From the NCBI RefSeq assembly GCF_014698825.1, contig NZ_JACJTT010000001.1:186001-250000 (forward strand): a DNA stretch of 64,000 nt. Direction: 5' to 3'. The notes below the pieces were generated by a model. That model saw only the letters and a program-made list of their open reading frames with translations, did not search any database and had not been told where the DNA came from. Made by a program: the position numbers and the translations under genes. The first letter of the stretch is position 1. Every line of letters begins with the position of its first letter. Source of the stretch: Richelia sinica FACHB-800. GTDB lineage: Bacteria; Cyanobacteriota; Cyanobacteriia; Cyanobacteriales; Nostocaceae. This document shows positions 46,755 through 62,091 of this stretch, piece after piece.

Positions 46755-48350
46755 ATGAAAGCATTATTGCTCTACCCTCAGTTCCCCCAGTCATTTTGGT
46801 CTTATGATCGCTTCATGGAAATGGCCGGACTCAAAGCCGTCTTGCCACCACTAGGAATTATTACAGTAGCAGCACTGCTACCAAAGGACTGGGAAATTAA
46901 ATTTTGCGATCGCAACGTTAATGTGGAAACAGATGCTGATTGGCAGTGGTGTGACCTGGTAATTCTTTCAGCAATGCTAGTGCAGAAACCAGATTTTCAT
47001 GCCCTAATTCAAAAAGGGGTACGTTTAGGTAAAAAAGTGGCAGTCGGTGGCCCTTATCCCACATCAATCCCACAAGAGGCCCTAAACTCGGGAGCGCATT
47101 ATTTGATTTTGGATGAGGGCGAGTTGACAATTCCTCAGTTTGTGGAAGCCCTCAACCAGGGCCAAGAACAAGGAATATTTCGCTCCCTAGAAAAGCCGGA
47201 TGTCACCCAAAGCCCGATGCCGCGTTTTGACTTGCTGCAACGGGATGCTTACTTGATGATGGCTATCCAGTTTTCTCGCGGTTGCCCCTTCAACTGTGAG
47301 TTTTGCGATATTATTACACTCTACGGTCGCAAACCACGCACAAAAGAACCTGACCAAACAATCGCCGAGTTACAGGCTCTTTATGATTTAGGCTGGCGCG
47401 GATCACTATTCATAGTTGACGACAACTTTATTGGTAATCAGCGTAACGTCAAACAACTCTTGCGAGAGTTGATTCCTTGGATGAAGCAACATGACTATCC
47501 TTTTACTTTCATCACTGAAGCTTCTGTGAATTTAGCCGAAGATGAAGAACTGTTGCAATTAATGAATGAAGCTGGTTTCTATGCAGTATTTCTCGGCATA
47601 GAAACTCCTGACCAAGACAGCCTACAAATGACCCAAAAACTGCAAAATACTCGCAATCCTCTTATAGAAGCATGTCAGAAAATTAATGAAGCAGGAATGC
47701 TAATTTATGCAGGGTTTATCCTCGGTTTTGATGGAGAGCGTCCAGGCGCTGGAGAACGAATCCAAGCTTTTGTAGAACAAACAAGTATTCCTCAACCGAT
47801 GTTGGGCATCCTTCAAGCTTTGCCTAATACTGCTTTATGGAAACGTTTGCAAAAAGAGCAGCGTTTATTAGAAAGTAAGGGTATTGGTGGTACTGAAGTG
47901 GGAGACCAAAATACCTTAATGAATTTCATTCCCACCCGCTCCATCGATGAAATCGCTAGAGAGTATGTAGAAGGCTTGTGGACATTATATGAACCTAAAA
48001 ACTATCTCAGGCGCTGTTTTCAGCAATGTCTGAGTATTAATTTGCCATCAAAACGAAAGCAAACTAGGCATTTTTCTCCACGTCAGGGGTTGCGACTCTT
48101 TGCTCAGTTAATCTGGCATCAGGGCTTACGGCAACCTGAAATTTTTGGACAGTTCTGGCAACAACTATGGACAATTCTGTTGAAAAAGCCTCAAGCTCTT
48201 AATCTGTATTTAGGTCTATGTGCTGCGGGTGAACACTTTTGGGAGTACCGTGCTTTAGCTAGACAACGGATTACTCAACAATTAGGTTACGATCCACTAA
48301 CAGAACAGAACACTTTGCTGGTGAACAAGTTCTATAGCAAAACCGTTTAG
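46755..48350 (+). CDS. B12-binding radical SAM protein (HpnP-like family, DUF4070)
   Basis: 531 aa. The N-terminal cobalamin-binding-like domain (about 1-150: VTVAALLPKDWEIKFCDRNV-type region, VAVGGPYPTSIP) is followed by a radical SAM barrel with the 4Fe-4S motif CPFNCEFC (Cys 177, 181, 184). DUF4070-like C-terminal sequence follows (IPQPMLGILQALPNTALWKRL). The layout matches the family of HpnP, the hopanoid C-2 methylase, but this family is broad in cyanobacteria, so lipid methylation is only one option. ATG start. Convergent with the WD40-KAP gene. Confidence 0.85.
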   Translation: MKALLLYPQFPQSFWSYDRFMEMAGLKAVLPPLGIITVAALLPKDWEIKFCDRNVNVETDADWQWCDLVILSAMLVQKPDFHALIQKGVRLGKKVAVGGPYPTSIPQEALNSGAHYLILDEGELTIPQFVEALNQGQEQGIFRSLEKPDVTQSPMPRFDLLQRDAYLMMAIQFSRGCPFNCEFCDIITLYGRKPRTKEPDQTIAELQALYDLGWRGSLFIVDDNFIGNQRNVKQLLRELIPWMKQHDYPFTFITEASVNLAEDEELLQLMNEAGFYAVFLGIETPDQDSLQMTQKLQNTRNPLIEACQKINEAGMLIYAGFILGFDGERPGAGERIQAFVEQTSIPQPMLGILQALPNTALWKRLQKEQRLLESKGIGGTEVGDQNTLMNFIPTRSIDEIAREYVEGLWTLYEPKNYLRRCFQQCLSINLPSKRKQTRHFSPRQGLRLFAQLIWHQGLRQPEIFGQFWQQLWTILLKKPQALNLYLGLCAAGEHFWEYRALARQRITQQLGYDPLTEQNTLLVNKFYSKTV

Positions 48351-48353
48351 TTG

Positions 48354-48387
48354 TAACTGGACTTTAGAATAGTCTAATGTCCAGTTA
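48354..48387. terminator. Hairpin between convergent genes
   Basis: 9-bp outer stem TAACTGGAC / GTCCAGTTA, then a 1-nt mismatch and an inner 5-bp stem TTAGA / TCTAA with a 4-nt loop. It starts 4 bases after the radical-SAM stop, before the WD40-KAP stop at 48435, and probably terminates both. Confidence 0.75.
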
Positions 48388-48434: not shown

Positions 48435-51400
48435 CTATTTATTAATATTAAAGCCATATAATTTTTGTCCATTGTCAACCCTGTATTCACGATTATAGTT
48501 GTCGTCAGGGTCGTAACCGATATCACCAATAAAACAGAAAGAAATCGCTAAATGAAACGTTCTTCTTTCAAATAAAAATTCATCTAGAGGTGGCATTTTG
48601 AGAAAATCGTTCTTAAACTTCTTCCATTCCCGTTGATTGTACATATCCATAAACAAATTTTGCTTTAATAAGCGATTCAGCCACTCATGTTTGTGAACTA
48701 TTAACGATTCTGCATCTGTTTCTTCAAATTCCAAATAAATTTCTTCTAATAATTTCCGCATTTCCTTAGGATATCTACCAGCTAAAGCCAAAAAAGCAAT
48801 TAAGCTTTGTTTAAATCTATCTTCAACGGGAGTCTCCCAGATTGTGTGATGTTTAACATCATTTTCTGTGGGAGTCCAAATAATTTTAATAATTTTGCAA
48901 ATATTAATTAGTCGCTTGGCTGTTCTCGGAGTCAGGTCTACATGCTGGCAACATTCTTTGATCCAATTAAATTCTTCAGTGGTGAATTTTTCCAGGGTGA
49001 TAAATGGGTCTATATTAACAGAATAAGCAGGAGTAATATGCTTGTTTTCTAGATGAGATACCTGAGTTTTATCATCAATATCTTTAATAGCTTCTTTTCT
49101 AGGAATTACAGAGATTGATAAATTTTCCTCTTCTTCTATATCTTCATCACTAGATGTTTGTGTAACCTGATGATGTTGTGATGATTCTAGTAATAATTCA
49201 CTGTCATCAGCTACCGATTCCGACGAAAAAATATCTGCTGGCAATAGTTTATCTACTAGAGAAAAGCTACTTTTTTCTGCAACTTGTGTGAATTGAGATA
49301 AATTACTAAAACTATGAATTTGAGAAGATTCCTCAATATCTACCAAAGACTTTAAGTAACTTTCGATCACACTTTTATTAATAGGACGCATTCTATAGGG
49401 AATTTGAATAATTTTCTCTAAATAATCTACCCCAGAAGGATTAGCACCACGTTTTAAAACTCCTCTGTACATATATTCTAAAGCCCGTCCAATATAACGG
49501 TCATCTATGGCTAAAATTATTACAAATATTTCCGTATTTAATAATAATTGTACAGCCTCTAACACTTGCACCACTCTATCGGGTGGACAACGGTCTAAAT
49601 CATCTATATATAAAACAATTCTAGCGGGTCCTCTAGGGAAATGTTTTTTCAAAACTGCCAACTTTTCAGGGTTAGTATGCCCATGTCTATAGATTAAATG
49701 CTCAGATAAATCTGCGAAATCATCTTGAATTTGGTGCATTAATCCCAACAACTTTTGATAGGAATTATCCTCTAAACGATTGTTAACAAACTCCAATAAA
49801 GATTTATATTTAGCAGTTAAACCCACACGCTGCTTTTGCCGTTCTACTTGTATTTGCAGATTTTCCATTTCCTGGCGTTTTGCAGCTATTTCTTGTTGTG
49901 CTAATTCCTTCTTTTCATAAATTTGTTTAACTTGATGCTGCTCATATTCTAGTTTGCGTTGGTTAACTTGCTCTTTAATTTTTTCTTCCTTAGTTCGGTT
50001 GATTTTTTCTCTTTCCGCATTTACATTTTCCCTGGCAGCTTGCAAAAATCTGACTGTTTTTACTTGGAGGATGTGGACTCTTTTAAAAATTTCCATCCCA
50101 GTAGTTAAAGCAGGGATAGCGGTTACACTTGTTAACCACAGTTTTAAAGCAGTGGATAATTCTACTAGCAGTGCTGGTAAGAAGTTGGGAATACATTTCA
50201 CTATGACAAAATAGACAATAAATGGTACAGCACAAGCACCTAAAAATATCAATAATGTCTTTTTATCTGTTTTGGTAAATTCAATTAAGCCAACTATCTG
50301 GCTGGGTTGTTCTTCCAGAAAATGGTTAATTTTTTGGAGATGGGCAATAATATTTTGCAGTTTCTCGTCTTTACTGACAATTAATTCCTGAGCAATATCT
50401 AGGAGATTAGATTGAGATAACTTATCCAACTGGAGTGTCGGAAACTGTGTTTCCAAATCTTTTCTATCTTTAAAACCACAAAAATTTAGAAAATCCTTGA
50501 GAATAGAGTTACCAAAATCATCTTTGAGAGTTTCTTTGAGTTGAGACAGAAACACAACCAATATGGATATATCGGTCATTTCTTCTTCCATTTCTGTTTC
50601 AATATTTTTAACTTCTTGGTTAAATACTTGCTCAAGCTGCACTAATTCTTGATTAAACTTAGTTTCAATCTCTTGATTCTTGGTTTTTAATTCTGCCTCT
50701 AAATTTTGTAATTCCTCTTCCGCACGCTTTAATTTTTCTGTTTCTTCCTGCCTAACTTGACTAAGAAGTTCCCACAAAGCATTACCATCAGGATTTTTAT
50801 CTTTTAGCTGAGAAAGTACATCTTGACTCAACTCCGATTCTAAAATTATCTTTCTGTCACTATCATTCATTTGATTAACAACACGCCAAATATCACCTCC
50901 CGCTAGTAAGTCAGAAACTTCTCCTAACTGCTTTTCTAAGGTTAATTGACGATCAAGTTGATCAAAAATTGTCTGCATTAAACTTGCCCATAAGTCAGAT
51001 TTGGCGTAACTCCAGGCATTAAATTTAATTTGGTAAACATGACCTACATAGGGAGAAAGACTCGGTTCATTTCCCACATCACCCCATGCCTGTTTTGCGG
51101 TGATGGGATGACAGCGAATCTTGGTAATTTGTTGTTCTATCAGGTGCATTCCAAAAGATTTACCACTACCCCAACTCCCTAAAATTGCCACTGCTAAGGG
51201 AGGTTGGAGACTTCGCAACATCAAGACATCAGCTAAAGATTGCAGTTCCTTCGCTACATCAAGAGAGTCTTCACCTGTGGGTTGGTCATTACGGAAAGCT
51301 TGGGGAATTCGGCGAATATTAAACCTCTGCCAAGGCCAGACTTTGATGCCATCTTTACTAGCACTGATAATGTAGTCTCCTTGAGGGTCAAAAGCGACTG

Positions 51401-53210
51401 AGTAAACTTCCCGCTGATGTTTGCCAATGATGATTTGCCGCTGACGGTGGGAGTCGGAGATATCCCATAACCGCACTGTGTTATCCGCACTCCCACTGAC
51501 CACGGTTTTACTATCGGGGCTAAAGGCAACTGAGTCAACAGTATTGGTATGACCGATGAAAGGTTGACCAATAACTTTTCCAGTGTTGATATCCCATAAC
51601 CGCACTGTGTTATCTGCACTCCCACTGACAACCATAGTCCCATCAGGACTAAAGGCGACGGAGGTGACAGTATCTGTATGACCAATGAAAGGTTGACCTA
51701 TTGCTTCTCCAGTTTCCACATCCCACAACCGCACTGTGTTGTCTGAACTTCCACTGACCACGGTTTTACTATCGGGACTAAACTCTACTGCGTAGACAGG
51801 ATTTGTATGACCAATGAAAGGTTGACCTGTTGCTTCTCCAGTTTTCACATCCCATAACCGTACTGTCTTGTCATAACTCCCACTGACAATCATCGTCCCA
51901 TCAGGACTAAAGGCTACCGAACGGATATAACTTGTATGGCCACACAGAGGTTGACTGATGGCTTCTCCAGTTTCCACATCCCACAACCGTAAGGTCTTGT
52001 CATTGCTACTACTGATAACCAGAGTCCCATCAGGACTAAAAGCAACTGAGTAGACAGCATCTGTATGACCAATGAAAGGTTGACCTATGGCTTCTCCCGT
52101 GTTGACATTCCACAACCGTACAGTTTGATCCCAACTACCAGTGGCAATCCTACTGCCGTTGTGATTAAAGGCTACTGATGTCACATAATCTGTGTGACCA
52201 GAGAAAGGTTGACCTAAAGTTTCTCCGGTGCTGACATGCCACAAGCGTAATGTCTTGTCATTGCTACCACTGACAACCATAGCCCCATCAGGACTACAAG
52301 CGATCGCGTTGACATAACTTGTATGACCAGAGAAGGGTTGACCTATTCCTTCTCCGCTGCTGGCATCCCATAACCGTAATGTCTGATCAAAACTGCCACT
52401 AATCACTTGTGTACCGTCGTGATTAAAGGCCGCTGATGTCACATAATCTGTGTGCCCAGATAAGGGTTGACCTAGAGTTTCTCCGGTGTTTACATCCCAT
52501 AACCTGACTGTTTTGTCAGCGCTGCCGCTAACCACTTGGGTACCATCGTGATTAAAGGCTACTGATGTTACATAATGTGTATGCCCAGACAAGGGTTGAC
52601 CTAGAGTTTCTCCCGTGTTGACATCCCACAACCTTAAGGTCTTGTCATTGCTACCACTGACAACCATTGTCCCATCAGGACTAAAGGCCACTGAGTTGAC
52701 AGAACTTGTATGACCAGACAAGGGTTTTGCGATCGCTTGTCCAGTTTTGGCATCCCATAACCTGATAGTGTTGTCAAAACTGCCACTCACCAGTTGTGTA
52801 CCGTCGTGATTAAAGGCTACTGATGTCACATAATCTGTATGACCAAAGAAGGGTGGTGCGATCGCTTGTCCGGTCTTGGCATCCCATAACCTTACAGTGT
52901 GATCAAAACTGCCGCTGACCACTTGTGTGCCATCGTGATTAAAAGCTACTGATGTCACATAATCTGTATGACCAATGCAACTTACCCACCTAGACCCAGT
53001 TAACCTATCCCAAATTTCTATCACGCCATTTGCTAAACCCACAGCAATACGTCTCCGTCCCTGGGGTGATATGGCTACTGCATTAACACCACTATCCAAC
53101 TCAGCAAAGGGTTTTTCGGATTCTGCGGTTGCTGCTTCTAGGTCTTGTTCTGCTTCCGTACCAGTCTCGATGCCTGGGGTTATTGCTTGTTGACCTTGGG
53201 TGATGTCCAT
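48435..53210 (-). CDS. WD40-repeat/KAP-family P-loop NTPase fusion protein
   Basis: 1591 aa. Residues about 40-636 are 14 WD40 repeats, enough for two seven-bladed propellers; repeats 2-12 are each 43 residues and highly alike (e.g. SGHTDYVTSVAFNHDGTQVV). A KAP NTPase follows: Walker A GSWGSGKS (about 678-685), FNAWSYAKSDLWASLM, coiled coils at about 815-880 and 1065-1130, two membrane helices at about 984-1005 and 1010-1030, and Walker B VLYIDDLDRCP (about 1199). The C-terminal ~370 residues include an acidic insert. KAP proteins sit at the inner membrane; several are linked to phage exclusion or signalling. Partner and trigger unknown. ATG start. Confidence 0.9.
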   Translation of the reverse strand: MDITQGQQAITPGIETGTEAEQDLEAATAESEKPFAELDSGVNAVAISPQGRRRIAVGLANGVIEIWDRLTGSRWVSCIGHTDYVTSVAFNHDGTQVVSGSFDHTVRLWDAKTGQAIAPPFFGHTDYVTSVAFNHDGTQLVSGSFDNTIRLWDAKTGQAIAKPLSGHTSSVNSVAFSPDGTMVVSGSNDKTLRLWDVNTGETLGQPLSGHTHYVTSVAFNHDGTQVVSGSADKTVRLWDVNTGETLGQPLSGHTDYVTSAAFNHDGTQVISGSFDQTLRLWDASSGEGIGQPFSGHTSYVNAIACSPDGAMVVSGSNDKTLRLWHVSTGETLGQPFSGHTDYVTSVAFNHNGSRIATGSWDQTVRLWNVNTGEAIGQPFIGHTDAVYSVAFSPDGTLVISSSNDKTLRLWDVETGEAISQPLCGHTSYIRSVAFSPDGTMIVSGSYDKTVRLWDVKTGEATGQPFIGHTNPVYAVEFSPDSKTVVSGSSDNTVRLWDVETGEAIGQPFIGHTDTVTSVAFSPDGTMVVSGSADNTVRLWDINTGKVIGQPFIGHTNTVDSVAFSPDSKTVVSGSADNTVRLWDISDSHRQRQIIIGKHQREVYSVAFDPQGDYIISASKDGIKVWPWQRFNIRRIPQAFRNDQPTGEDSLDVAKELQSLADVLMLRSLQPPLAVAILGSWGSGKSFGMHLIEQQITKIRCHPITAKQAWGDVGNEPSLSPYVGHVYQIKFNAWSYAKSDLWASLMQTIFDQLDRQLTLEKQLGEVSDLLAGGDIWRVVNQMNDSDRKIILESELSQDVLSQLKDKNPDGNALWELLSQVRQEETEKLKRAEEELQNLEAELKTKNQEIETKFNQELVQLEQVFNQEVKNIETEMEEEMTDISILVVFLSQLKETLKDDFGNSILKDFLNFCGFKDRKDLETQFPTLQLDKLSQSNLLDIAQELIVSKDEKLQNIIAHLQKINHFLEEQPSQIVGLIEFTKTDKKTLLIFLGACAVPFIVYFVIVKCIPNFLPALLVELSTALKLWLTSVTAIPALTTGMEIFKRVHILQVKTVRFLQAARENVNAEREKINRTKEEKIKEQVNQRKLEYEQHQVKQIYEKKELAQQEIAAKRQEMENLQIQVERQKQRVGLTAKYKSLLEFVNNRLEDNSYQKLLGLMHQIQDDFADLSEHLIYRHGHTNPEKLAVLKKHFPRGPARIVLYIDDLDRCPPDRVVQVLEAVQLLLNTEIFVIILAIDDRYIGRALEYMYRGVLKRGANPSGVDYLEKIIQIPYRMRPINKSVIESYLKSLVDIEESSQIHSFSNLSQFTQVAEKSSFSLVDKLLPADIFSSESVADDSELLLESSQHHQVTQTSSDEDIEEEENLSISVIPRKEAIKDIDDKTQVSHLENKHITPAYSVNIDPFITLEKFTTEEFNWIKECCQHVDLTPRTAKRLINICKIIKIIWTPTENDVKHHTIWETPVEDRFKQSLIAFLALAGRYPKEMRKLLEEIYLEFEETDAESLIVHKHEWLNRLLKQNLFMDMYNQREWKKFKNDFLKMPPLDEFLFERRTFHLAISFCFIGDIGYDPDDNYNREYRVDNGQKLYGFNINK

Positions 53211-53516: not shown

Positions 53517-55034
53517 TTATGCCAAACTCAAGAAACCTGTTTGAATTAAATACGATGTGTATGTCATCAATAATTGGGAATCAATTGGAGGACAAACTAC
53601 ACCACTTCCTTTTAAAGACTCTAAAGTTTCTGCACAACTAATAATTGGTCTTCTAGCTTGTAAATACAAATCAGGAATGGTGATTTGTTCATCAGACCAA
53701 CGCTCTAACAAAAATGGACGCAAAGTGTATAATGGATTTTCTTGTGAAGTCACATTATTAATTAACTCTGCTTGCCATTCTTCGTAGGGAATCATCTTAA
53801 TGGCAAATCCAAAGGAACGCACCCAATCAACTAAACCTTTTAAAGATGCTGGTTGTGGATGTTGCAAGTGAAAAGCTTTACCAATTGATGCTTCTTTTCT
53901 AGATAGATAAACAATGGCTTTACTTACATAATCCACCGGCGACATATCCAACATATAATCTACATCAGGGAAAGTTCCCATTTGCAGACATCCTTTAATC
54001 ATCAAGTTGATAAAATCATGGGTGTTGCAAATGCCAGTTTTACTATCCCCAGCAATTAAAGGTGGTCTGTAAATAGTTACAGGTAAGCCTCGATCACGAG
54101 CAATTTTCACTAACTTCTCAGAAACCCATTTTGTTTGGGAGTAACCCAAGAAAATACCTTGCCAATCATTAAAATCGTCCTGTTCTTGGACTACCTTACC
54201 AGCGTAAGCTGATGATTCAAATACAGCCACACTAGAAACGTAATGAACAGGCTTAACTTTAGTTTGACAAGCTAAACGCAGAACTTCTTGAGTGCCTAAA
54301 ACATTAGGCGCTTTTAGTGCTGAATAGGGGAAAACATAGTTCAGCATTGCACCACTATGGTAAATGGTGTCAATATTAGCAGCTAAAGATTGAAATTGCG
54401 CTGCATCAATTCCTAAAAAAGGTTGAGCTAAATCACCAATAATCGGGATAATTCTATCTTGATATTTCTCATCCCACAGAGCATATTGCTGTAAATTATT
54501 TTGTAATTTGCTCTTACCTTCTGTGACATCAGTAGCCCGAACTAAGCAATAAATAATTGCTGGAGTTGATTCTAGCAATTCTTTGATAACAAATGCACCT
54601 AAATAACCAGTCCCCCCTGTGATAAAGATATGTTTGGGGTTTTCAATGGCAACGTTACATACGCCAGCAGGTTGAATAGTTGGGTCGAGTATACATTCAG
54701 CAGCCAAATCAAGATAAGGTGGGGCAAAATTTGTAGCTGTAATTGTACCACCAACTTTGTCTTTAACTGGTGAATCATTGCTTGATTCTTCTGCTAACCG
54801 TTGGGACAAAGAAGCAATACTGGGATAATGCCAAAGCAGTACAGGTGAAGGTTTAAAACCAAGTAACTGCTCTAATTTACTGATAATAATCATGGCTTGA
54901 GCAGAATCCAAACCATAATTTTCTAAGTGTTCTTCAACATCAATTGATTCTGGAGAAATTCCCAGAACATCAGCAAAATTAGATATGAGAAAAGATTGAA
55001 TATCTTCAGCAGTATAAAACTGTTTTATAGCCAT
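53517..55034 (-). CDS. ACP-thioester reductase (HetM/HglB-like)
   Basis: 505 aa from ATG 55034 with GGAG upstream; a 40-codon in-frame extension lacks homologous character and I reject it. An acyl-carrier domain (about 8-80, phosphopantetheine Ser 44 in [11 protein letters not shown]) precedes a reductive-release domain with NAD(P) motif ITGGTGYLG (about 139-147) and catalytic YSQTK. Size and order match HetM/HglB of Anabaena, which releases the heterocyst glycolipid chain by reduction to aldehyde/alcohol. It is the last gene of the leftward operon and presumably ends chain synthesis. Whether it is HglB itself or a paralogue cannot be told here. Confidence 0.9.
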
Positions 55035-55163
55035 TTTACATCTCCAATCAATAGGAAGGTAATATTTAGAAAGTAGGTTGGTTTTTGTTACTAAACCCAA
55101 CGTTAAAGATGTTTTCAGGTAGCTAAACCACATTTGGGTAAAAGTTTCGCACAATCTCTCGTA

Positions 55164-55196
55164 AGAGTAGACGCAAAGAAATATATGGTCTACTCT
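55164..55196. other. Intercistronic hairpin in the hgl-like operon
   Basis: 9-bp arms AGAGTAGAC / GTCTACTCT with a 15-nt loop, in the ~190-base gap between the enoyl-reductase stop and the reductase start. It may set relative expression by RNA processing or partial termination. Confidence 0.55.
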
Positions 55197-55226
55197 GTGC
55201 GAATCATTTGTTGGGGTTCACTTTGT

Positions 55227-56891
55227 TCAAACTAACCTACTCTCTGGGCGATATTGAGTGTAATCATTAGGTAATTGCAAACCCTGCATTTTCAAACTTT
55301 GAATGCGGTAAAGAAAAGCCGTTCCTTTCATAATTTGGTCAGCTACATCAACGACATGACGATTAGCAGGTTCAGCTAAATATGAACCCTTAACCCAATC
55401 ATTAAAACTGCCCATAGCGGGGCCGCACCAAATTTGATAATCTACTTCTCGACCTTTTTCACCGGCACTAGCCCAGCGAGAAGATAAGCCTAAATACCAG
55501 CGAAAAATTAAAGCCATCTTAAGTTTAGGATTGTTAACGGCTTTACCTAATTTTTCAGGATTTTTTTGTGATAAATATGTAGCTGTTCCTTCCCAAACTT
55601 CAGCAATAGTTTTGCGGAAAATCTGTTTCTCTAACTTTTCTTTTTCTGCCAACGGAATTTCTTCAATTGAGTCATAAGTGCGGTATAATTCGTATAGCTT
55701 TTGCGCCCGCATAGGGAACATTGTTCCACGTTTGAGAACTTGTAATTTAACTCCCATTTCAAACATATCAGCAGCGGGAGCCATAATCATATCTGCCATT
55801 TCTGCTTGTGCTAGGAGTTTTTTTGTATATTCACTAGCACCAGATTCCACACAAGATTGATTAATAGAACCAGTGACAATATAGGCTGCACCCATCATAA
55901 AACCAGCTAAGGCTGATTCTGGTGTACCAATCCCTCCAGCTACGCCTATTCTAATAGGAATAGAGTAGTTATATTGTGTTTGAATTTCATCCCGTAAGGC
56001 AATAATTGAAGGTAGCAAACACACTAAAGGACGATTATCTGTATGTCCACCTGAATCAGCTTCGACGGTAATATCATCCGCCATTGGCACCTTGCTAGCC
56101 AGGTTGGCTTGTAATTCAGTGATGAGTCCTTGTTGTAATAATTCTTGTAAAATTCTTGGTGGTGCAGGTTGTAAAAATTTAGCAGCTACTTCTCGTCGAG
56201 AAATTTTAGCAACAACTTTATTTTTAATTTCAATTTGATTAGCTGCATTCAAGCTTAAACCTGCCACACGATAGTAAACTATGTTGGATGTTAAGTCTAA
56301 AAATGCAGAGGCTTCAACTGTTCTGACACCGTATTTGAGATATAATTCAACGGCGCGGCGTTCAATTGCTAAGTCGTTAGGACTGTGAATTAAATTGAAA
56401 GCGTAGGGGCCATTTGGTAAAGCAGCTTGAATAGTTTTAATGGCTGCTTCTAGACGTTCTGGAGGTAAACCACCTGCACCAAAAGAACTTAATATTTTTT
56501 CTTTTCCTAAGGCAATGACCATATCTTCAGAAGCGATACCACCAGCCATTGCCCCTGTCATATAGGGATATTTAACACCATGAAAGGCGAGAAAGCTAGG
56601 ATCACCAAATTGTTGGGAATGAATGGGAGTAACAGAAGTGAGAAGTTCTAGTTGTGTCGATGCAGTATCTTCAATAGGTGCTAAGTAACCATCATTAGTA
56701 ATGCCAATTTTACCGTTAATTCTGACGATATGACAGGGTTTATCTAATGTGAAAAGTTTAGATTTTATGGCGTTTTTTTCAAATGCGATATAATCTAATG
56801 AACCTTTCCAAGTTTGGGTTGGCTGGGTTGTCCAAGATAAAAATTTTAGTCCGTTTTCGTGTGTATTTAATACCGTCTCAAGTGTGGTCAC
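55227..56891 (-). CDS. PfaD-type trans-acting enoyl reductase (FMN, nitronate-monooxygenase fold)
   Basis: 554 aa. A TIM-barrel FMN enzyme with PFAD-family markers: PYMTGAMAGGIASEDMVIALGKEKILSSFGAGG, ITVEADSGGHTDNRP, AYIVTGSINQSCVESGASEYTKKLL and MFPMRAQKLYELYRTYDSIE. In PUFA and polyketide synthases this family reduces enoyl-ACP in trans. It starts with GTG 56891, preceded by GAGGAA. In this operon it would supply the full-reduction step for a saturated chain, as in heterocyst glycolipid synthesis. Confidence 0.92.
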   Translation of the reverse strand: MTTLETVLNTHENGLKFLSWTTQPTQTWKGSLDYIAFEKNAIKSKLFTLDKPCHIVRINGKIGITNDGYLAPIEDTASTQLELLTSVTPIHSQQFGDPSFLAFHGVKYPYMTGAMAGGIASEDMVIALGKEKILSSFGAGGLPPERLEAAIKTIQAALPNGPYAFNLIHSPNDLAIERRAVELYLKYGVRTVEASAFLDLTSNIVYYRVAGLSLNAANQIEIKNKVVAKISRREVAAKFLQPAPPRILQELLQQGLITELQANLASKVPMADDITVEADSGGHTDNRPLVCLLPSIIALRDEIQTQYNYSIPIRIGVAGGIGTPESALAGFMMGAAYIVTGSINQSCVESGASEYTKKLLAQAEMADMIMAPAADMFEMGVKLQVLKRGTMFPMRAQKLYELYRTYDSIEEIPLAEKEKLEKQIFRKTIAEVWEGTATYLSQKNPEKLGKAVNNPKLKMALIFRWYLGLSSRWASAGEKGREVDYQIWCGPAMGSFNDWVKGSYLAEPANRHVVDVADQIMKGTAFLYRIQSLKMQGLQLPNDYTQYRPESRLV

Positions 56892-56944
56892 TGTAGGTAT
56901 TCCTCAGTTTTAAAAAGGAGTTCAGTAGTTACAGGAGTTTAGAA

Positions 56945-57010
56945 CGCAATCTATACAAAGGCGCAAAGAATAAATAAATATTTTTCTCTGCATCTTTGCG
57001 CCTCTGCGTG
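56945..57010. repeat. Short GCGCAAAG/CTTTGCGCC repeat cluster
   Basis: Contains AAAGGCGCAAAGAA and then TGCATCTTTGCGCCTCTGCGTGA in opposite orientation, forming an inverted arrangement. The same word family occurs at 61768-61800 and 63853-64000, so it marks several gaps of this operon. It is typical Nostoc-type short repetitive DNA with no coding function. Confidence 0.75.
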
Positions 57011-57012
57011 AA

Positions 57013-60000
57013 TTATTTATCTTCGCTGAGTAAATTTTGAGCGCAAGCGAGTTGCAGTTGAATGATTTCGCTCATTTGTTGACTAAATTCTTGCCTAGCT
57101 TGCAAAAAGCTAGTGTGTGCTTTAGTTAATTTGGAGTTGTTGTTTGTCAATTTTTGATACTGAGCAGTTTTCAAATCATTCATGATAATTCTGTAGTTAA
57201 GTCTGGAAGTGCGGAGGTATGCAACTTTGGTGTTTGCTGGTTTTTGCGCTGTATTTAACTTTGAAGATTCTAGTTTTTCTGGAAGATTTAAACCGTTATC
57301 CATGATAGTTTTCATGGTTATTTTTTCGGTTTTTGGCTGACTTTCTGGTATGGATTGCGGATAAATTTCACTGGGCAGAATTGGGACAGAAAGCTGGAGA
57401 GAATTAATAAGCTTATATTCTCTCTGGTGGGAATTTTGGTGTGCATTGTTACTGAAAATTTGACTATTTTCAGGATTTAAAATTGCCTTAGCAATTGATT
57501 TACCACCAAGGGTTACTTTTCTCATCGCTGCTGTATTTTTCTTAGCAGTTTCTGAGGACAAGTTGTATAGAGGAGATAAGTCTAGGTTAACTCGATGGCT
57601 GACGAGTTTAGCTAGTACTCTCACTATAGATGTATGGTCATCAATACCCCGACGATTTAGGGATACAGTAATGTGTTGTTGGTTGCCAAGAATTTTGGAG
57701 ATCCAACGTGAACAAATTCCTCCTGCACCCGCTTCAATAAATATTTTTGCACCATCGTTATAAACTCGATTGACTAAGCGGGGAAAGTCGAGTTCTTGAC
57801 ATAAGCCCTTGGCGATATTTTGAGCAATAATTTCACTGTCAATGGTGATGGGTTTATACTCAGCAGCCGAATAAAATGTTATCCCAGAAATGGGTTTAGC
57901 TGGTAGGTTGTTAAGTCTCACCAGTTCAGAACATTCTGACTGCATAGCTGGGGCATGAATTACATGATCAAATGGCGCAGGAAAGGCGTTACAACCGAGT
58001 TTTTTAATTACCCGTTCACAGGCTGTTGGTTCACCGGCAATTAATACTTCTTCTGGCGTATTAATTTGGGTTAAGTAAACGCGAGTTTCGGTTTTTAAAC
58101 ATTCTCTAACTTGGGCAGGTGTAGCCATGAGAACATAGTTAGCCCACAGGTTATTGTCTGTTGCTGTGCTTATTTTTGGTAGCCCCCAATACTCCCGCAC
58201 CGCATTTTTATTTCCTGATAACCTATCTCCAAATAAGTTAGAGGAATTAAAACTGTGACTACCTTGATAAAAGTTACTCCAAACACCTTGGGCAACCATC
58301 ATACTGGTTTCACCCAAACTGTAGCCAAAGACATATTTGGGCTTAACTTGAAAATCGTCTCTGATAATTGTTGTGATTAATCTGGTAAAGTGCATTTCTG
58401 CTTCCAGCATAGCCAGAGAATCATCTAACAATTTCTTCTCTAATGTTTCTATGTGTCTGGTGGTTAATTTGCTTAAACTTCTGGGAAATATTAATTTCTC
58501 AACATCGGCAACACGCCTGTGGAGACTTTGAAGTATTTCATCATTGAAAGTTTTAGGAAAAAGGCGGAACATCATCCGACCAATACCAACATAGGAGTTA
58601 ACTGCGGCGGGATAAACAAAAGCTACCTCTCCAGCTTTTCCTAGTGGTTTGGGTGTAAAATAACTACCTGTTGGTGTTTGCCAATCCTTGCCTGTAGCAA
58701 AGGCGTTAGCTACACCTTTTCTGGCTGATTCAATTTCTTTGAGTAGTTCTTTTTGGTTGCGTCCAGTGATAGATATAGTGTATTTTGCACTGGATTTTTG
58801 TTGATAATTAACAAAGTTTTGGGAAGCTGTTGCTGTTAAAGATTCAGCAGTTTCTATGGTTTTTTGCAGGTTATCTAGTGCTGCAAATAAGCTAGTTTGG
58901 TCGTCTCCGGTGATAGGGAAAAGATGAAATGGTCTTTCCTGCAAGTAACGACTGCTGCGTTCAGTTTGACTGGTTTCCTCCGAGAGAATTAAATGGGCAA
59001 ATGTACCATCACAGCCAATACTATTAATAGCTGCAATTCGGCATTTAGCTTCTTTTTGCAAAAACCAAGGTCGAGACTCGGTAGCGACGTAGAAGGGGCT
59101 ACCTTCCCATACTTGCGGTGTTTTCACCCCAGACCAACTAGGGGTAGCAGGTATATATTTATAGTAGACACTAAGGGCGGTCTTAATTAAGCTAGCAATG
59201 CCGGAAGCTACGAAAGTATGACCAATATTGGCTTTAACGCTACCAATGGCACAATGTAAACCATCACCAACTCCAGGGTAAGCTTGGAGGATACCTGTAA
59301 TTTCTGCTTCGTCTTGGATGGGAATACCACTAGCGCAGACTTCCAGATAGTTGACTTCTACAGGTTGAATACCTGCTTGCTGGAAAGCTTGCTGACAAAC
59401 TTCCGTGATAGTATTGCTATCTACAGCCATTGAGGGAGACTGACCGATGCTTAAACTGTCGATGACTGCATAGATGCGTTCTTGATTTTCTAAAGCTATA
59501 TCATGGCGTTTGAGAACTACTGCACCTGCACCTTCTCCCACTGTCCAACCGTTGGCGTTTTGGTCAAAACTTAAGGTATTAATACCAGTGTTAATTTTGC
59601 CCCATTGACTGCGAAGTAAAACGTTTTCTACGCCTCCAGCTAAGTCAACTGCACCAACTAACACTGCTTCGACTTCGTTGGTTGCCAGTAGCATTTGCGC
59701 GAGTTCTATGGCTTTGAACGCCGCATTTTCAACTGCGCTGATGCTGAAGGAAGGCCCGGAGAAGTTCCACAGAGAACATACACGACTAGCCATAATATTG
59801 GCTACATAGCTGAGGTATTCACCAATTTCCACTTGATGGTGAACACTATCTTTAACAATAGTTTCCAACTGGGCAATTTTTTCTGGAGGTAGGGCAATTT
59901 CTGCCGCATTCAAGCCATCTCGGACTTGCCAAGGGGAATTCCAACGTTGCTGTAGCTGGTGTACAGATAACTCTGTTTCCGCAGCGATAATCACCGCTAC

Positions 60001-60363
60001 ATTAGTGTTGGGTTGTATTTTCGCATCTTTGAGGGCGCGATCGCACACCTTCAACATTAATAACTGTTGCGGGTTGAGTTTCTCAACTTCGTTTGGTGGG
60101 ATTTTATACGCCAGGGTATCAATTTCAAAATCTGTAATATATGCCCCTTGGGGTGCTTTTCCAGCTTCTAAACCGTACTCTTGCAGTAACTTTTCTTGCT
60201 CATTAATGCCGTGCCATCTTTGTTCTGGCAGGGGAATAAAATGCTGTTTTCCGTCGTAGATACTGCCCTCAAAGGCATCTAAACCATTGCATTCCCCGAA
60301 AAAGGCATCCATACCGACAATTGCAACTTTTACACTGAGCGAAGTCGAAGTGCTAGCCACCAT
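57013..60363 (-). CDS. Ketosynthase chain-length-factor/acyltransferase fusion (HglC/PfaC-like)
   Basis: 1116 aa. Residues about 10-460 are a KS fold lacking catalytic residues: Glu 212 stands at the nucleophile position (SISAVENAAF) and Cys 343 replaces the first His (EVCASG), while the second His 382 remains (NIGHT). That is the pattern of a chain-length factor. Residues about 575-900 are an acyltransferase with Ser 682 in GYSLGE. The C-terminal ~200 residues include a helical AHTSFLQARQEFSQQMSEI segment. The start codon overlaps the upstream KS stop as TAATG, so the CLF and KS are translationally coupled and very likely form the condensing dimer. Confidence 0.9.
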   Translation of the reverse strand: MVASTSTSLSVKVAIVGMDAFFGECNGLDAFEGSIYDGKQHFIPLPEQRWHGINEQEKLLQEYGLEAGKAPQGAYITDFEIDTLAYKIPPNEVEKLNPQQLLMLKVCDRALKDAKIQPNTNVAVIIAAETELSVHQLQQRWNSPWQVRDGLNAAEIALPPEKIAQLETIVKDSVHHQVEIGEYLSYVANIMASRVCSLWNFSGPSFSISAVENAAFKAIELAQMLLATNEVEAVLVGAVDLAGGVENVLLRSQWGKINTGINTLSFDQNANGWTVGEGAGAVVLKRHDIALENQERIYAVIDSLSIGQSPSMAVDSNTITEVCQQAFQQAGIQPVEVNYLEVCASGIPIQDEAEITGILQAYPGVGDGLHCAIGSVKANIGHTFVASGIASLIKTALSVYYKYIPATPSWSGVKTPQVWEGSPFYVATESRPWFLQKEAKCRIAAINSIGCDGTFAHLILSEETSQTERSSRYLQERPFHLFPITGDDQTSLFAALDNLQKTIETAESLTATASQNFVNYQQKSSAKYTISITGRNQKELLKEIESARKGVANAFATGKDWQTPTGSYFTPKPLGKAGEVAFVYPAAVNSYVGIGRMMFRLFPKTFNDEILQSLHRRVADVEKLIFPRSLSKLTTRHIETLEKKLLDDSLAMLEAEMHFTRLITTIIRDDFQVKPKYVFGYSLGETSMMVAQGVWSNFYQGSHSFNSSNLFGDRLSGNKNAVREYWGLPKISTATDNNLWANYVLMATPAQVRECLKTETRVYLTQINTPEEVLIAGEPTACERVIKKLGCNAFPAPFDHVIHAPAMQSECSELVRLNNLPAKPISGITFYSAAEYKPITIDSEIIAQNIAKGLCQELDFPRLVNRVYNDGAKIFIEAGAGGICSRWISKILGNQQHITVSLNRRGIDDHTSIVRVLAKLVSHRVNLDLSPLYNLSSETAKKNTAAMRKVTLGGKSIAKAILNPENSQIFSNNAHQNSHQREYKLINSLQLSVPILPSEIYPQSIPESQPKTEKITMKTIMDNGLNLPEKLESSKLNTAQKPANTKVAYLRTSRLNYRIIMNDLKTAQYQKLTNNNSKLTKAHTSFLQARQEFSQQMSEIIQLQLACAQNLLSEDK

Positions 60364-61742
60364 TATGCGTTTTCCCCCTGTTCCTGTTCCAGAATTAGAT
60401 GAGAGTTAGTACCACCAAAACCAAATGCGCTTAAAGCTACGTGCTTAGTTCCTTGCTTCTGCCAAGGAATTGTTTTTGTAACAATGCTTTGCGACGAAAT
60501 CACAGTATCGTCATTACCGATGGGTTCACTGACACCCACTGTTGCCGGGATAACATTGTGGGACATACTTAAAATCGTCTTTGTTATCCCCACCATTCCC
60601 GCAGCAACGAGTAAATGACCGACATTGGTTTTGGCTGAACCTACCAACGGTTTGGCTTGGTGTTGACCGAAAAAGCCTTCAACCGAGTTACATTCGGTGG
60701 TATCTCCCAACAAAGTGCCAGTAGCGTGACACTCTAAATAGTCAATTTCTGTGGGGTTGAGTTGCGCTTCGGCGTATGCTCTTTCGTATGCTGAAGTTTG
60801 TCCTTGGGCGTTAGGGCTGAGGAGATGCTTACCTTTACCATCATTAGATAGACCATTACCGCAGACAGTTGCGAGAATATTGTCTCCATCTCTGACTGCA
60901 TCACTGTAGCGTTTGAGCATTACCATCCCGATACCTTCAGAGGTAATTAACCCACGTGATGCCTTATCGAGAGGACGACTAATGCCATTTTCTGGATATC
61001 CTTGAATACCGGAAAATAACATTCTTAAAAATAGAGGGTCAGCGCAACTAATAGCACCAGCTAACATCATGTCAGCTTTGCCAGACCACAGATAATGGGA
61101 TGCTAACTTAATGGAATAAAACGCCGAAGAACAAGCAGCATCAATACAGAAATGAGTGCCAGAAAGAGAAAATGCACGAGAAACAATGGCGGCTGGTAAG
61201 CCGGAAATCATCGCGTTATATGGCGAGACTTTCGTATTACTAGGAATACCTGCTAAATCAAAGTCTCGATTTTGTAAAAGTTCGCCAATGGCTGGATTAA
61301 TTGTTTGCTGATAAAGGGGAGCAAACAGTTGATTAGAAGCCTTAGTTGGTAAAGCGAGAGTACCAAGAATTACGCCACATTTTGAGAGAGCAGATTTATT
61401 TCCCCAGTAGCCACTATGAACAATTGCCTGTTTAGCGGCATACAGTGACCATTTAAAAGTATTGTCTAGACTTTCGACCAATGCAGGTGGTAAATTGTAC
61501 TCACTGGCATCAAATCTAAAGTTGCGAATAAATCCACCTTTAAGAAAGTAGATTTTTTCTGGTTTGCCTTTGTTAGAATCGTAGAATATGGCAGGGTCTA
61601 CGCCTAATTCCGCAACACTGATATCAGAAGTTGAGTCTTTTTCATCGGTGAGATTATGCCAAAATTCTTCAGGATTGTTGGCATCAGGAAATAGGCAGGA
61701 TAACCCGATAATGGCGATTTTTTCCACTGTTGAAATCCTCAT
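60363..61742 (-). CDS. Beta-ketoacyl synthase (hgl/Pfa type)
   Basis: 459 aa, complete KS. Catalytic triad: Cys 204 in CIDAACSSAFYS, His 339 in ECHATGTLLGD and His 376 in TNVGHLLVA, plus NVGH and GFGGTNSHLIL near the end. It performs the decarboxylative condensation in chain elongation. Its stop overlaps the start of the CLF-AT gene (TAATG), so it probably pairs with that inactive KS. It resembles HglD of heterocyst glycolipid clusters, but I do not assign a symbol. ATG start. Confidence 0.92.
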   Translation of the reverse strand: MRISTVEKIAIIGLSCLFPDANNPEEFWHNLTDEKDSTSDISVAELGVDPAIFYDSNKGKPEKIYFLKGGFIRNFRFDASEYNLPPALVESLDNTFKWSLYAAKQAIVHSGYWGNKSALSKCGVILGTLALPTKASNQLFAPLYQQTINPAIGELLQNRDFDLAGIPSNTKVSPYNAMISGLPAAIVSRAFSLSGTHFCIDAACSSAFYSIKLASHYLWSGKADMMLAGAISCADPLFLRMLFSGIQGYPENGISRPLDKASRGLITSEGIGMVMLKRYSDAVRDGDNILATVCGNGLSNDGKGKHLLSPNAQGQTSAYERAYAEAQLNPTEIDYLECHATGTLLGDTTECNSVEGFFGQHQAKPLVGSAKTNVGHLLVAAGMVGITKTILSMSHNVIPATVGVSEPIGNDDTVISSQSIVTKTIPWQKQGTKHVALSAFGFGGTNSHLILEQEQGENA

Positions 61743-62091
61743 TGGGGTATGAGGGAAAAGAGGAAATGTTTCGCGCAGAGGCGCAAAGGCGCAAAGATAA
61801 GAACGCCAAGTATATTTACTCTTTTTCCCTAAAGTATTTAGGATTTACGCGATTCCCCAATGTGTTAGGATTTTTATTTCGTTGGGTTGAGTGTGAAACC
61901 CAACCTACAATCATCATCTGTCAAATGTTTTTTAGTAAATGCAATTTCACCCAATTACTAATATAGCAATTCTAAAGGTTTCGTGAAAATCTTCTTTTTC
62001 TTCCTTCGTGCCTTTGCGGTATGCCTCCGGCACGCTACGCGAACGTTTAAAAGCAACTTTCACCACAAACTCAGAATTGCTAATTGTATTC
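61743..62091. other. Intergenic gap in the hgl-like operon with Nostoc-type repeats
   Basis: About 350 bases. It holds GCGCAGAGGCGCAAAGGCGC-type repeats near 61770-61798 and, at about 62010-62045, a GC-rich word CCTCCGGCACGCTACGCGAA typical of Nostoc dispersed repeats. The 78-codon plus-strand frame here is repeat-derived. A new promoter for the KS gene is possible. Confidence 0.6.

What the first reader, a model, noticed from the sequence alone, without database searches (positions are those of the whole stretch)
48435..53210. Giant WD40-KAP NTPase: possible membrane-bound conflict/defence or signalling protein
Fourteen WD40 repeats at the N-terminus, enough for two propellers, are fused to a KAP P-loop NTPase with two membrane helices and long coiled coils. 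KAP proteins include phage-exclusion (PifA-type) and scaffold NTPases; WD40 arrays commonly act as sensors in STAND-like ATPases. Here a probable ligand-sensing array is joined to a membrane ATPase in one gene with a terminator on its 3' side and no obvious partner gene. A role in phage defence or cell-death signalling is inference.
Basis: partly seen in the sequence, partly recalled or inferred. Interest (0 to 1): 0.62.

Follow-up and report, generated by a model that had tools for sequence, protein, structure and literature searches.

The report
Membrane ATPase with swappable sensor array
A filamentous-type cyanobacterium carries one very large gene that joins a two-propeller sensing array to a membrane-inserted ATPase, and in related species the sensing array has been replaced while the ATPase stayed the same, as expected of an immune or self-recognition receptor rather than a housekeeping protein.

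Summary
In detail: a 1591-aa protein with 14 WD40 blades and a KAP NTPase (intact Walker A and B, hydrophobic helices between them, long helices). The claimed 3' terminator was not found. It is a stand-alone accessory gene: an orthologous intact KAP part occurs in 12 of 145 genomes of the family (own genome included), and 5 others keep only a C-terminal remnant, each at a locus that holds a fuller copy elsewhere. Main new evidence: sensor exchange. Anabaena catenula and A. lutea have the gene at one locus with KAP parts 93% identical in DNA but arrays only 52%. The A. lutea array matches instead a Dolichospermum KAP array (82%) and arrays of nSTAND1 NTPases (75-77%). Within arrays, variability concentrates on positions that belong to the set used for fungal NLR repeats, though other arrays of the genome do so too. 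Related KAP proteins carry EAD, caspase, trypsin or phosphorylase domains instead of WD40. Best reading: a membrane-anchored NLR-like conflict receptor (defence or self/non-self), built on KAP instead of STAND. No defence-island enrichment, phage link or partner gene was shown; function is untested.

The parts
48435..53210 (-). WD40-KAP gene, 1591 aa; its KAP part matches only this place in the genome
52974..53102 (-). first, divergent blade (about aa 37-79), alike among orthologues
51423..52973 (-). twelve GHxx WD40 repeats (aa 80-596), class T array; in 145 family genomes the matches at E 1e-60 or less (two candidates scored per genome) all lie at KAP loci
51297..51422 (-). last, divergent blade (aa 597-638), alike in most orthologues
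51156..51179 (-). Walker A, GSWGSGKS (aa 678-685)
50523..50780 (-). long helix (aa 811-896), coiled-coil-like insert
50199..50255 (-). hydrophobic helix 1 (aa 986-1004)
50115..50180 (-). weaker hydrophobic helix 2 (about aa 1011-1032)
49815..50174 (-). long helix (aa 1013-1132), coiled-coil-like, overlaps helix 2
49581..49610 (-). Walker B, YIDDLDRCPP (aa 1201-1210)
48999..49328 (-). acidic linker (aa 1295-1404) with pLDDT under 50, the second variable region between the sister genes L036 and L037
48501..48986 (-). conserved C-terminal module (aa 1409-1570); remnants in other genomes come from the C-terminal end of the gene
48354..48387 (.). 9-bp inverted repeat between the convergent genes, no T run

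Best explanation
It is a membrane-anchored NLR-like receptor. Shown by sequence: 14 WD40 blades (enough for two 7-bladed propellers), an intact KAP ATPase, hydrophobic helices inserted in the ATPase, a patchy gene with decayed copies, and array histories that conflict with the history of the ATPase, with one array class shared with nSTAND1 receptors. I read this conflict as exchange of whole sensor arrays. Inferred: the propellers, on the cytoplasmic side, bind a non-self protein (of a phage, plasmid or rival strain) through the variable positions of their repeats; binding lets the ATPase bind ATP and oligomerise at the membrane; the helices and coiled coils then carry out or trigger the response, most simply membrane damage and death of the cell in a filament. 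No enzymatic effector domain is recognised in this protein, so the membrane part is the likeliest output.
For: Same locus, different array: L036/L037 KAP DNA 0.93, array 0.52, N-terminal stretch 0.86; L034/L035 KAP 0.78, array 0.59. Array class does not follow the KAP tree: 5 changes among 10 labelled genes (least possible 2, shuffled mean 4.6); the three class D genes as one clade rejected at p-AU 1.7e-7, L037+L038 at 1.2e-57. All 11 repeats of L037 are nearest to L038 and all 10 of L038 to L037. Class D arrays also sit on nSTAND1 NTPases at 75-77% DNA identity. Repeat positions 7, 23, 5, 4, 25 are the most variable over 10 arrays and fall in the fungal NLR set; pN there over pS has a bootstrap range above 1 in 2 of 10 arrays. 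Orthologous intact KAP parts in 12 of 145 family genomes, C-terminal remnants in 5. Other N-termini on KAP relatives include EAD7, EAD11, caspase, trypsin and PNP. Best solved match of the KAP model in the second look is RdrA of RADAR, Z 15.1.
Against: No defence-island enrichment could be shown. No viral-contig or phage relatives. In the window's own array pN at the variable positions over pS is 0.73 (0.59-0.88), not above 1, and mean repeat identity is only 65%. The same positions are the variable ones in 4 of 4 other measured arrays of the genome. Class D repeats are widespread in WD40 genes (38 of 145 genomes), including one gene without a recognised NTPase (G140, 79% over 495 bases). No expression or functional data. 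The second hydrophobic helix is weak in this protein.
Confidence: 0.6

Rival explanations
1. Anti-phage abortive-infection ATPase of the Tmn or PifA type, with the WD40 array as phage sensor (the specific form of the best explanation).
For: Tmn is described as a KAP NTPase with two unusual transmembrane domains that can inhibit T2, P1, phiVi and phiX (PMC11846954, passages); PADLOC gives partial QatA (70 bits) and PifA (28 bits) matches around Walker B.
Against: QatA equivalog cut-off missed by far (71 of 600 bits); no family named Tmn among the matches; no visible excess of defence genes nearby.
Confidence: 0.35
2. Self/non-self (strain) recognition in filamentous cyanobacteria, like fungal het-d/het-e, where the array reads a polymorphic product of another strain.
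For: Array length and class differ at one locus, and classes cross genera; the parallel with het-d/e repeats (PMC12222747, passages).
Against: No data on polymorphism within a species; cyanobacterial filaments do not fuse as hyphae do (general knowledge).
Confidence: 0.15
3. Signalling or scaffold ATPase for membrane complexes, without a conflict role; array change is neutral amplification and recombination.
For: Propellers with recently amplified blades are found in all major propeller lineages, and the authors suggest that many decay soon after origin (PMC9218822, passages); low-identity arrays of the same genome (L187, L189) vary most at the same positions.
Against: Neutral amplification alone does not explain that an array is closer to that of another genus than to the sister gene's at the same locus, nor the EAD, caspase and trypsin N-termini of relatives.
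Confidence: 0.2
4. Decaying or selfish gene without function.
For: Remnants in 5 of 145 genomes and relatives split over two frames, L091 and L097, unless these are assembly errors.
Against: Intact copies keep KAP parts 54-71% identical to the window's with invariant Walker motifs; outside the variable set, array pN/pS is 0.23-0.37 in 9 of 10 arrays and 0.63 in the tenth.
Confidence: 0.05

Closest known systems
STAND ATPases with highly repetitive WD40 propellers in cyanobacteria (WRAP; 2YMU)
   Same: 2YMU, a highly repetitive propeller, is the best structural and sequence match of the array (Foldseek E 2e-63, 42% identity; phmmer 3e-137); WRAP-derived chains also match (7bie). PMC9218822 (passages): WRAP has 14 blades in two 7-bladed propellers, C-terminal to a STAND ATPase, with rapid turnover and a proposed innate-immunity role. 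That 2YMU and WRAP are the cyanobacterial proteins I think they are is recalled.
   Different: Here the array is N-terminal and the ATPase is KAP with inserted hydrophobic helices, not STAND.
Fungal NLRs HET-D/HET-E
   Same: Repeat-number change and variability at matching repeat positions (position set from PMC12222747; the register is my recollection of the fungal repeat).
   Different: NACHT-type with the array C-terminal (PMC4986451); repeat identity over 80% there against a mean of 65% in the window.
Tmn (KAP NTPase with two membrane domains, anti-phage)
   Same: KAP ATPase with transmembrane domains (PMC11846954, passages).
   Different: No sequence comparison was run; whether Tmn carries a sensor array was not tested.
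QatA
   Same: KAP-type core; 71-72 bits around Walker B.
   Different: Far under the equivalog cut-off of 600; no family named Qat among the 24 matched by 92 neighbour ORFs.
RdrA of RADAR
   Same: Best solved match for the KAP model in the second look, Z 15.1, 356 aligned, rmsd 5.9.
   Different: 12% identity; plain Foldseek had no match at E 0.001 or less, and the tool warns that Z up to about 13 can be common for helical models. [quoted passage not shown] other parts were not compared.
KAP ATPases that replace STAND in EAD conflict systems
   Same: Kaur et al. state that STAND may be displaced by the KAP ATPase (PMC8195603, passage); EAD7-KAP and EAD11-KAP fusions are seen here.
   Different: The window protein has no EAD match among the families listed; its N-terminus is WD40.

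Membership tests
KAP P-loop NTPases | PF07693 above cut-off | tested here: met
   114.6 bits against 20
KAP P-loop NTPases | intact Walker A and Walker B | tested here: met
   Invariant in 14 of 14 rows and 35 of 35 rows
KAP P-loop NTPases | membrane helices inserted between Walker A and Walker B | tested here: met
   A hydrophobic 19-mer of mean 1.5 or more lies between the motifs in 38 of 38 rows; 32 of 38 have two or more, the window has one plus a weak one of 1.44. That this defines the family is recalled and stated in the title of a paper cited; the paper is not held
STAND NTPases | a STAND Pfam domain (NACHT, NB-ARC, nSTAND) | tested here: not met
   The KAP part matches only KAP_NTPase and, under cut-off, HhH-GPD at E up to 1
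QatA | NCBIfam equivalog score of 600 | tested here: not met
   71.4 and 72 bits
PifA | full-length PifA profile match | tested here: inconclusive
   27.9 bits, profile positions 116-252 of 720
Tmn | homology to Tmn over the KAP and membrane part | not tested
   No Tmn sequence was fetched; no family of that name is among the 7, and whether the library holds one was not checked
RdrA (RADAR) | same fold and an rdrB partner gene | tested here: inconclusive
   Z 15.1 for the fold; RdrB was not searched for
NLR-like WD40 sensors with high internal conservation | repeats over 85% identical (criterion of PMC4986451) | tested here: not met
   Mean aa identity 65% in the window, 73-79% in five orthologues
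NLR-like WD40 sensors with high internal conservation | variability concentrated on the positions that are diversified in het-d/e | tested here: met
   Entropy permutation p under 0.05 in 10 of 10 arrays, 0.0026 in the window; but also in 4 of 4 other measured arrays of the genome. Register of the position set recalled
Defence-island genes | enrichment of defence genes nearby | tested here: inconclusive
   92 neighbour ORFs of 10 contexts: 24 PADLOC families with 1-2 members each; 116 control ORFs of 20 regions that I picked in the same 10 genomes: 114 families, 1 member each in the 25 shown. Members cannot be counted exactly; no enrichment visible

The most novel reading that the evidence does not exclude
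Nostocales have a bacterial counterpart of the fungal HET-D/E receptors in which whole sensor cassettes, mostly of 7 or 14 blades, are traded between unrelated receptor chassis (KAP and nSTAND1) and between genera at fixed loci, giving a population-level repertoire of recognition specificities on a membrane-inserted ATPase.
Probability: 0.35. Interest if true: 0.82.

Novelty: new variant of a known kind. Interest (0 to 1): 0.66.

Why it matters
Repeat-array receptors in bacteria have been called immune mostly by analogy. Here two sister genes at one locus share a 93% identical ATPase but carry different arrays, which is a ready-made natural swap: one chassis with two sensors can be put in one laboratory host and tested for different specificity. 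It also suggests that the ATPase chassis (KAP or STAND) and the sensor array evolve as separate, tradable modules.

Tried and rejected
Defence-island test by PADLOC scan of 92 neighbour ORFs against 116 ORFs of 20 regions that I picked in the same 10 genomes: no enrichment visible, exact member counts not available. Empty-site test with the two flanking genes: both are widespread (142 and 141 of 145 genomes); in the rows that I compared they lay far apart or on other contigs, and the lists were cut, so no empty site could be read. Viral contigs and phage records: none; plasmids: 5 records with partial matches under 38% identity, none cyanobacterial. Foldseek on the KAP model gave nothing at E 0.001 or less; only the second look ranked RdrA first. 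I first took the variable positions as special to this family; control arrays of the same genome share them (4 arrays measured, 2 more had fewer than four repeats of one length, the other regions gave no array by my pattern), so I use them only as support. TIR in L144 (E 0.053) and macro in L085 (E 0.018) are under the Pfam cut-offs and are not claimed. Term searches for KAP in the RADAR paper and for KAP and Tmn in PMC9122126 gave nothing relevant; whole-word KAP is absent from PMC7159879 and PMC3710099. Literature searches for a WD40-KAP fusion: I recognised no paper that describes one in the listings or the passages I opened; most subscription papers are not held.

Full report
THE OBJECT. 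The minus-strand ORF 48435-53210 encodes 1591 aa. It is the only place in its 5.80-Mb genome that matches its own KAP part at E 0.001 or less; the KAP Pfam profile matches 6 places, two of them in this gene. Aa 37-638 are 14 WD40 blades: twelve typical GHxx repeats between two divergent closing blades (blade count by hand). The AlphaFold2 model of this part (pLDDT 84.8, pTM 0.68) matches best 2YMU, a highly repetitive propeller (E 2e-63, 42% identity), and then Apaf-1. Aa 640-1591 are a KAP NTPase (PF07693, 114.6 bits against 20) with Walker A at aa 678, Walker B at aa 1201, a strong hydrophobic helix at aa 986-1004 and a weak second one, long helices on both sides, an acidic low-confidence linker and a conserved C-terminal module. 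All 38 KAP parts checked have a hydrophobic stretch between the two motifs. The KAP model is of middling quality (pLDDT 70.4, pTM 0.54). Its best solved match in the second look is RdrA of the RADAR defence system (Z 15.1, rmsd 5.9, 356 aligned, 12% identity), then Orc/Cdc6 (13.2) and BrxC (12.4); the tool warns that Z up to about 13 can be common for helical models, and plain Foldseek had nothing at E 0.001 or less.

DISTRIBUTION. In 145 genomes of the same family, 24 match the KAP part at E 1e-10 or less (6 candidates scored per genome in the rows listed). My sorting of these 24: 11 have WD40 plus an intact KAP part (own genome included), 1 has an intact KAP part with only 45 aa before it (G125), 1 is a 736-aa ORF without the Walker A end (G098), 2 are distant with another N-terminus and an intact KAP part (G107, G140), 4 are more distant (G036, G104, G112, G142), and 5 are C-terminal remnants (G041, G076, G101, G113, G127). 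A profile survey of 386 genomes of the phylum found 16 at E 1e-15 or less (at most 2 candidates scored per genome). Neighbours are conserved only inside groups of related genomes: L031/L032/L036/L037; L034/L035/L043/L049; L040/L041/L048; L042/L044/L050. So there are several different loci, and each of the 5 remnants lies at a locus that holds a fuller copy in another genome. The window's two flanking genes have relatives in 142 and 141 of 145 genomes, but I saw no genome with both at this spacing in the rows I compared. The scan of named genomes returned 77 loci (255 relatives, best 80 kept); the closest are Sphaerospermopsis, Dolichospermum, Anabaena, Trichormus and Aphanizomenon. L091 and L097 are split over two frames, or misassembled. 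No relative was found in viral contigs or phage records; 5 plasmid records have partial matches under 38% identity.

SENSOR EXCHANGE. A. catenula (L036) and A. lutea (L037) have the gene at the same locus (names by matching). Their KAP parts are 91% identical in protein and 93% in DNA, the N-terminal stretch 86% in DNA, but the arrays 46% in protein and 52% in DNA. The A. lutea array is 82% identical in DNA to that of Dolichospermum ST_sed8 (L038), although the KAP parts of those two are only 80% identical. All 11 repeats of L037 are nearest to L038 and all 10 of L038 to L037. L034 and L035 share a locus, with KAP 78% and arrays 59%; L034 repeats are nearest to L037 in 5 of 5. I named three array classes: T (window, L031, L032, L035, L036), D (L034, L037, L038) and Q (L033, L042). 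Q is weak: 10 of 11 L033 repeats are nearest to L042, but only 2 of 6 the other way. Three genes (L039, L074, L080) were left unlabelled because their nearest repeats were mixed. On a careful KAP tree of 15 rows the classes need 5 changes among 10 labelled rows (least possible 2, shuffled mean 4.6), and a D clade is rejected (p-AU 1.7e-7; L037+L038 1.2e-57). I had seen the quick tree before this test, and only 2 of 12 inner branches of the careful tree are starred, one of them L036+L037. In 145 genomes (two candidates scored per genome) 38 match the A. lutea array at E 1e-60 or less. After itself, the best by score are the Dolichospermum KAP array (81%), then G035 (77%), G040 (76%), G127 (75%) and G078 (76%). 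Three of these four are open genes of nSTAND1 NTPases with C-terminal WD40 (PF20703, 373-416 bits); the G040 place gave no ORF that passed my filter. A shorter match in G140 (79% over 495 bases) lies in a gene without a recognised NTPase. The window's class T array matches at E 1e-60 or less in 6 of 145 genomes (two candidates scored per genome): its own and five others, all at the KAP loci. So T looks like the native KAP array, and D like one shared with STAND receptors and other WD40 genes. L031 and L032 show a smaller change: KAP 94%, array 67%. Blade counts by hand: 7 in L034, L035, L039, L042, L074, L080; 14 in the window, L032, L036 and about 14 in L033; 17 in L031, 13 in L037, 12 in L038. 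So 10 of 13 are at 7 or 14. Draft assemblies may miscount repeats, as PMC12222747 warns for Illumina data (abstract).

WHERE REPEATS VARY. Over 10 arrays the five most variable repeat positions, counted from G of GH, are 7, 23, 5, 4 and 25. PMC12222747 classifies het-d/e repeats by positions 10, 11, 12, 14, 30, 32 and 39 (passage). With an offset of 7, which rests on my memory of the fungal repeat, this is 3, 4, 5, 7, 23, 25 and 32. Entropy is higher at this set than at random sets in all 10 arrays (permutation p from under 0.0001 to 0.049; window 0.0026). pN at the set over pS of the array is 0.73 in the window (0.59-0.88), 1.96 in L037 (1.34-2.96), 1.46 in L036 (1.13-1.96), 1.43 in L038 (0.93-1.99), 1.09 in L031, 1.00 in L032, 0.83 in L033, 0.69 in L039, and 2.25 and 1.29 in L034 and L042 with only four repeats each; outside the set it is 0.23-0.37, with L039 at 0.63. 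Three of the 13 arrays had too few repeats of one length to be measured. This is a pairwise count, not a codon model. Control: four other arrays of the same genome also vary most at this set (permutation p 0.0086 or less), with ratios 0.99, 0.86, 0.73 and 1.06. So the pattern is shared with other WD40 arrays of the genome and is support, not proof.

OTHER N-TERMINI. I scanned 36 N-terminal regions of KAP relatives (one, L047, as the whole protein), chosen by me from the loci. In 16 of 36 a Pfam family passed its cut-off: WD40 in 7 (L091, L092, L093, L095, L108, L125, L144), EAD7 in 2, caspase in 2 (L105, L047), and one each of PNP_UDP_1, EAD11, Trypsin_2, EVE and TPR; 20 had none above cut-off. 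The caspase of L047 scores 139.8 against 140 for the EACC1-associated caspase model. L109 has a weak Csm6-like CARF region. On a 38-row KAP tree the types need 7 changes, which is the least possible for 8 types, so the total leaves room for a single origin of each; the table for single groups gives 3 for WD40. The domain repertoire, not repeated swapping, is the point here. Kaur et al. write that STAND can be displaced by the KAP ATPase in EAD systems (PMC8195603, passage), and a DGR study lists KAP among NTPases of diversified targets (PMC10907252, passage). Both fit.

MECHANISM. Shown: the domains, the intact ATPase motifs, the hydrophobic insert, the patchiness and the conflicting array histories. 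Inferred: the array reads a non-self protein; ATP-driven assembly at the membrane follows; the membrane part is the effector. I commit to a conflict receptor at 0.6 and to phage as its main target at 0.35. Tmn, a KAP NTPase with two membrane domains, is an anti-phage protein of unexplored mechanism (PMC11846954, passages), so the chassis type is known to defend; I did not compare the sequences.

LIMITS. Neighbourhood scans showed no enrichment. No within-species data were available. The founding KAP paper is not held and is not used beyond its title as cited. Novelty: the parts are known, and KAP in conflict systems is known; a WD40-KAP receptor with array exchange at a fixed locus, and sharing of arrays with nSTAND1, was not described in the passages I opened.

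Noticed in passing
window 53517-63822: Polyketide/fatty-acid-type genes upstream on the minus strand: a thioester reductase with carrier domain and a PfaD-family protein, and ketosynthase-like proteins by eye.
   Followed up: partly
window 46755-48350: B12-binding radical SAM protein with DUF4070, convergent with the WD40-KAP gene; relatives in 142 of 145 family genomes at E 1e-150 or less.
   Followed up: partly
L033:3063-9135: In Sphaerospermopsis the KAP gene is followed on the same strand by a 522-aa gene and two more large WD40 proteins (718 and 782 aa).
   Followed up: no
L047:9089-11596: Caspase-fold domain fused to a KAP ATPase; the usual catalytic cysteine position reads threonine by eye (IDSTFSG).
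   Followed up: partly
L096, L098, L100, L110, L111, L112 N-termini: KAP ATPases with 1125-1567 aa in front that match no Pfam family above cut-off; five of the six are in the tree and form one group with L101 and L103.
   Followed up: no
L186, L191 (G000:C30:4000-17000 and G000:C1:131500-137000): Other homogenised WD40 arrays in the same genome (mean repeat identity 79% and 82%).
   Followed up: partly
L043, L044, L048, L049, L050: The five remnants all come from the C-terminal end of the gene, none from the array or Walker A end.
   Followed up: partly
L093, L095, L099, L108: WD40-KAP relatives of other cyanobacteria have four or five hydrophobic stretches between the Walker motifs instead of one to three.
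   Followed up: no
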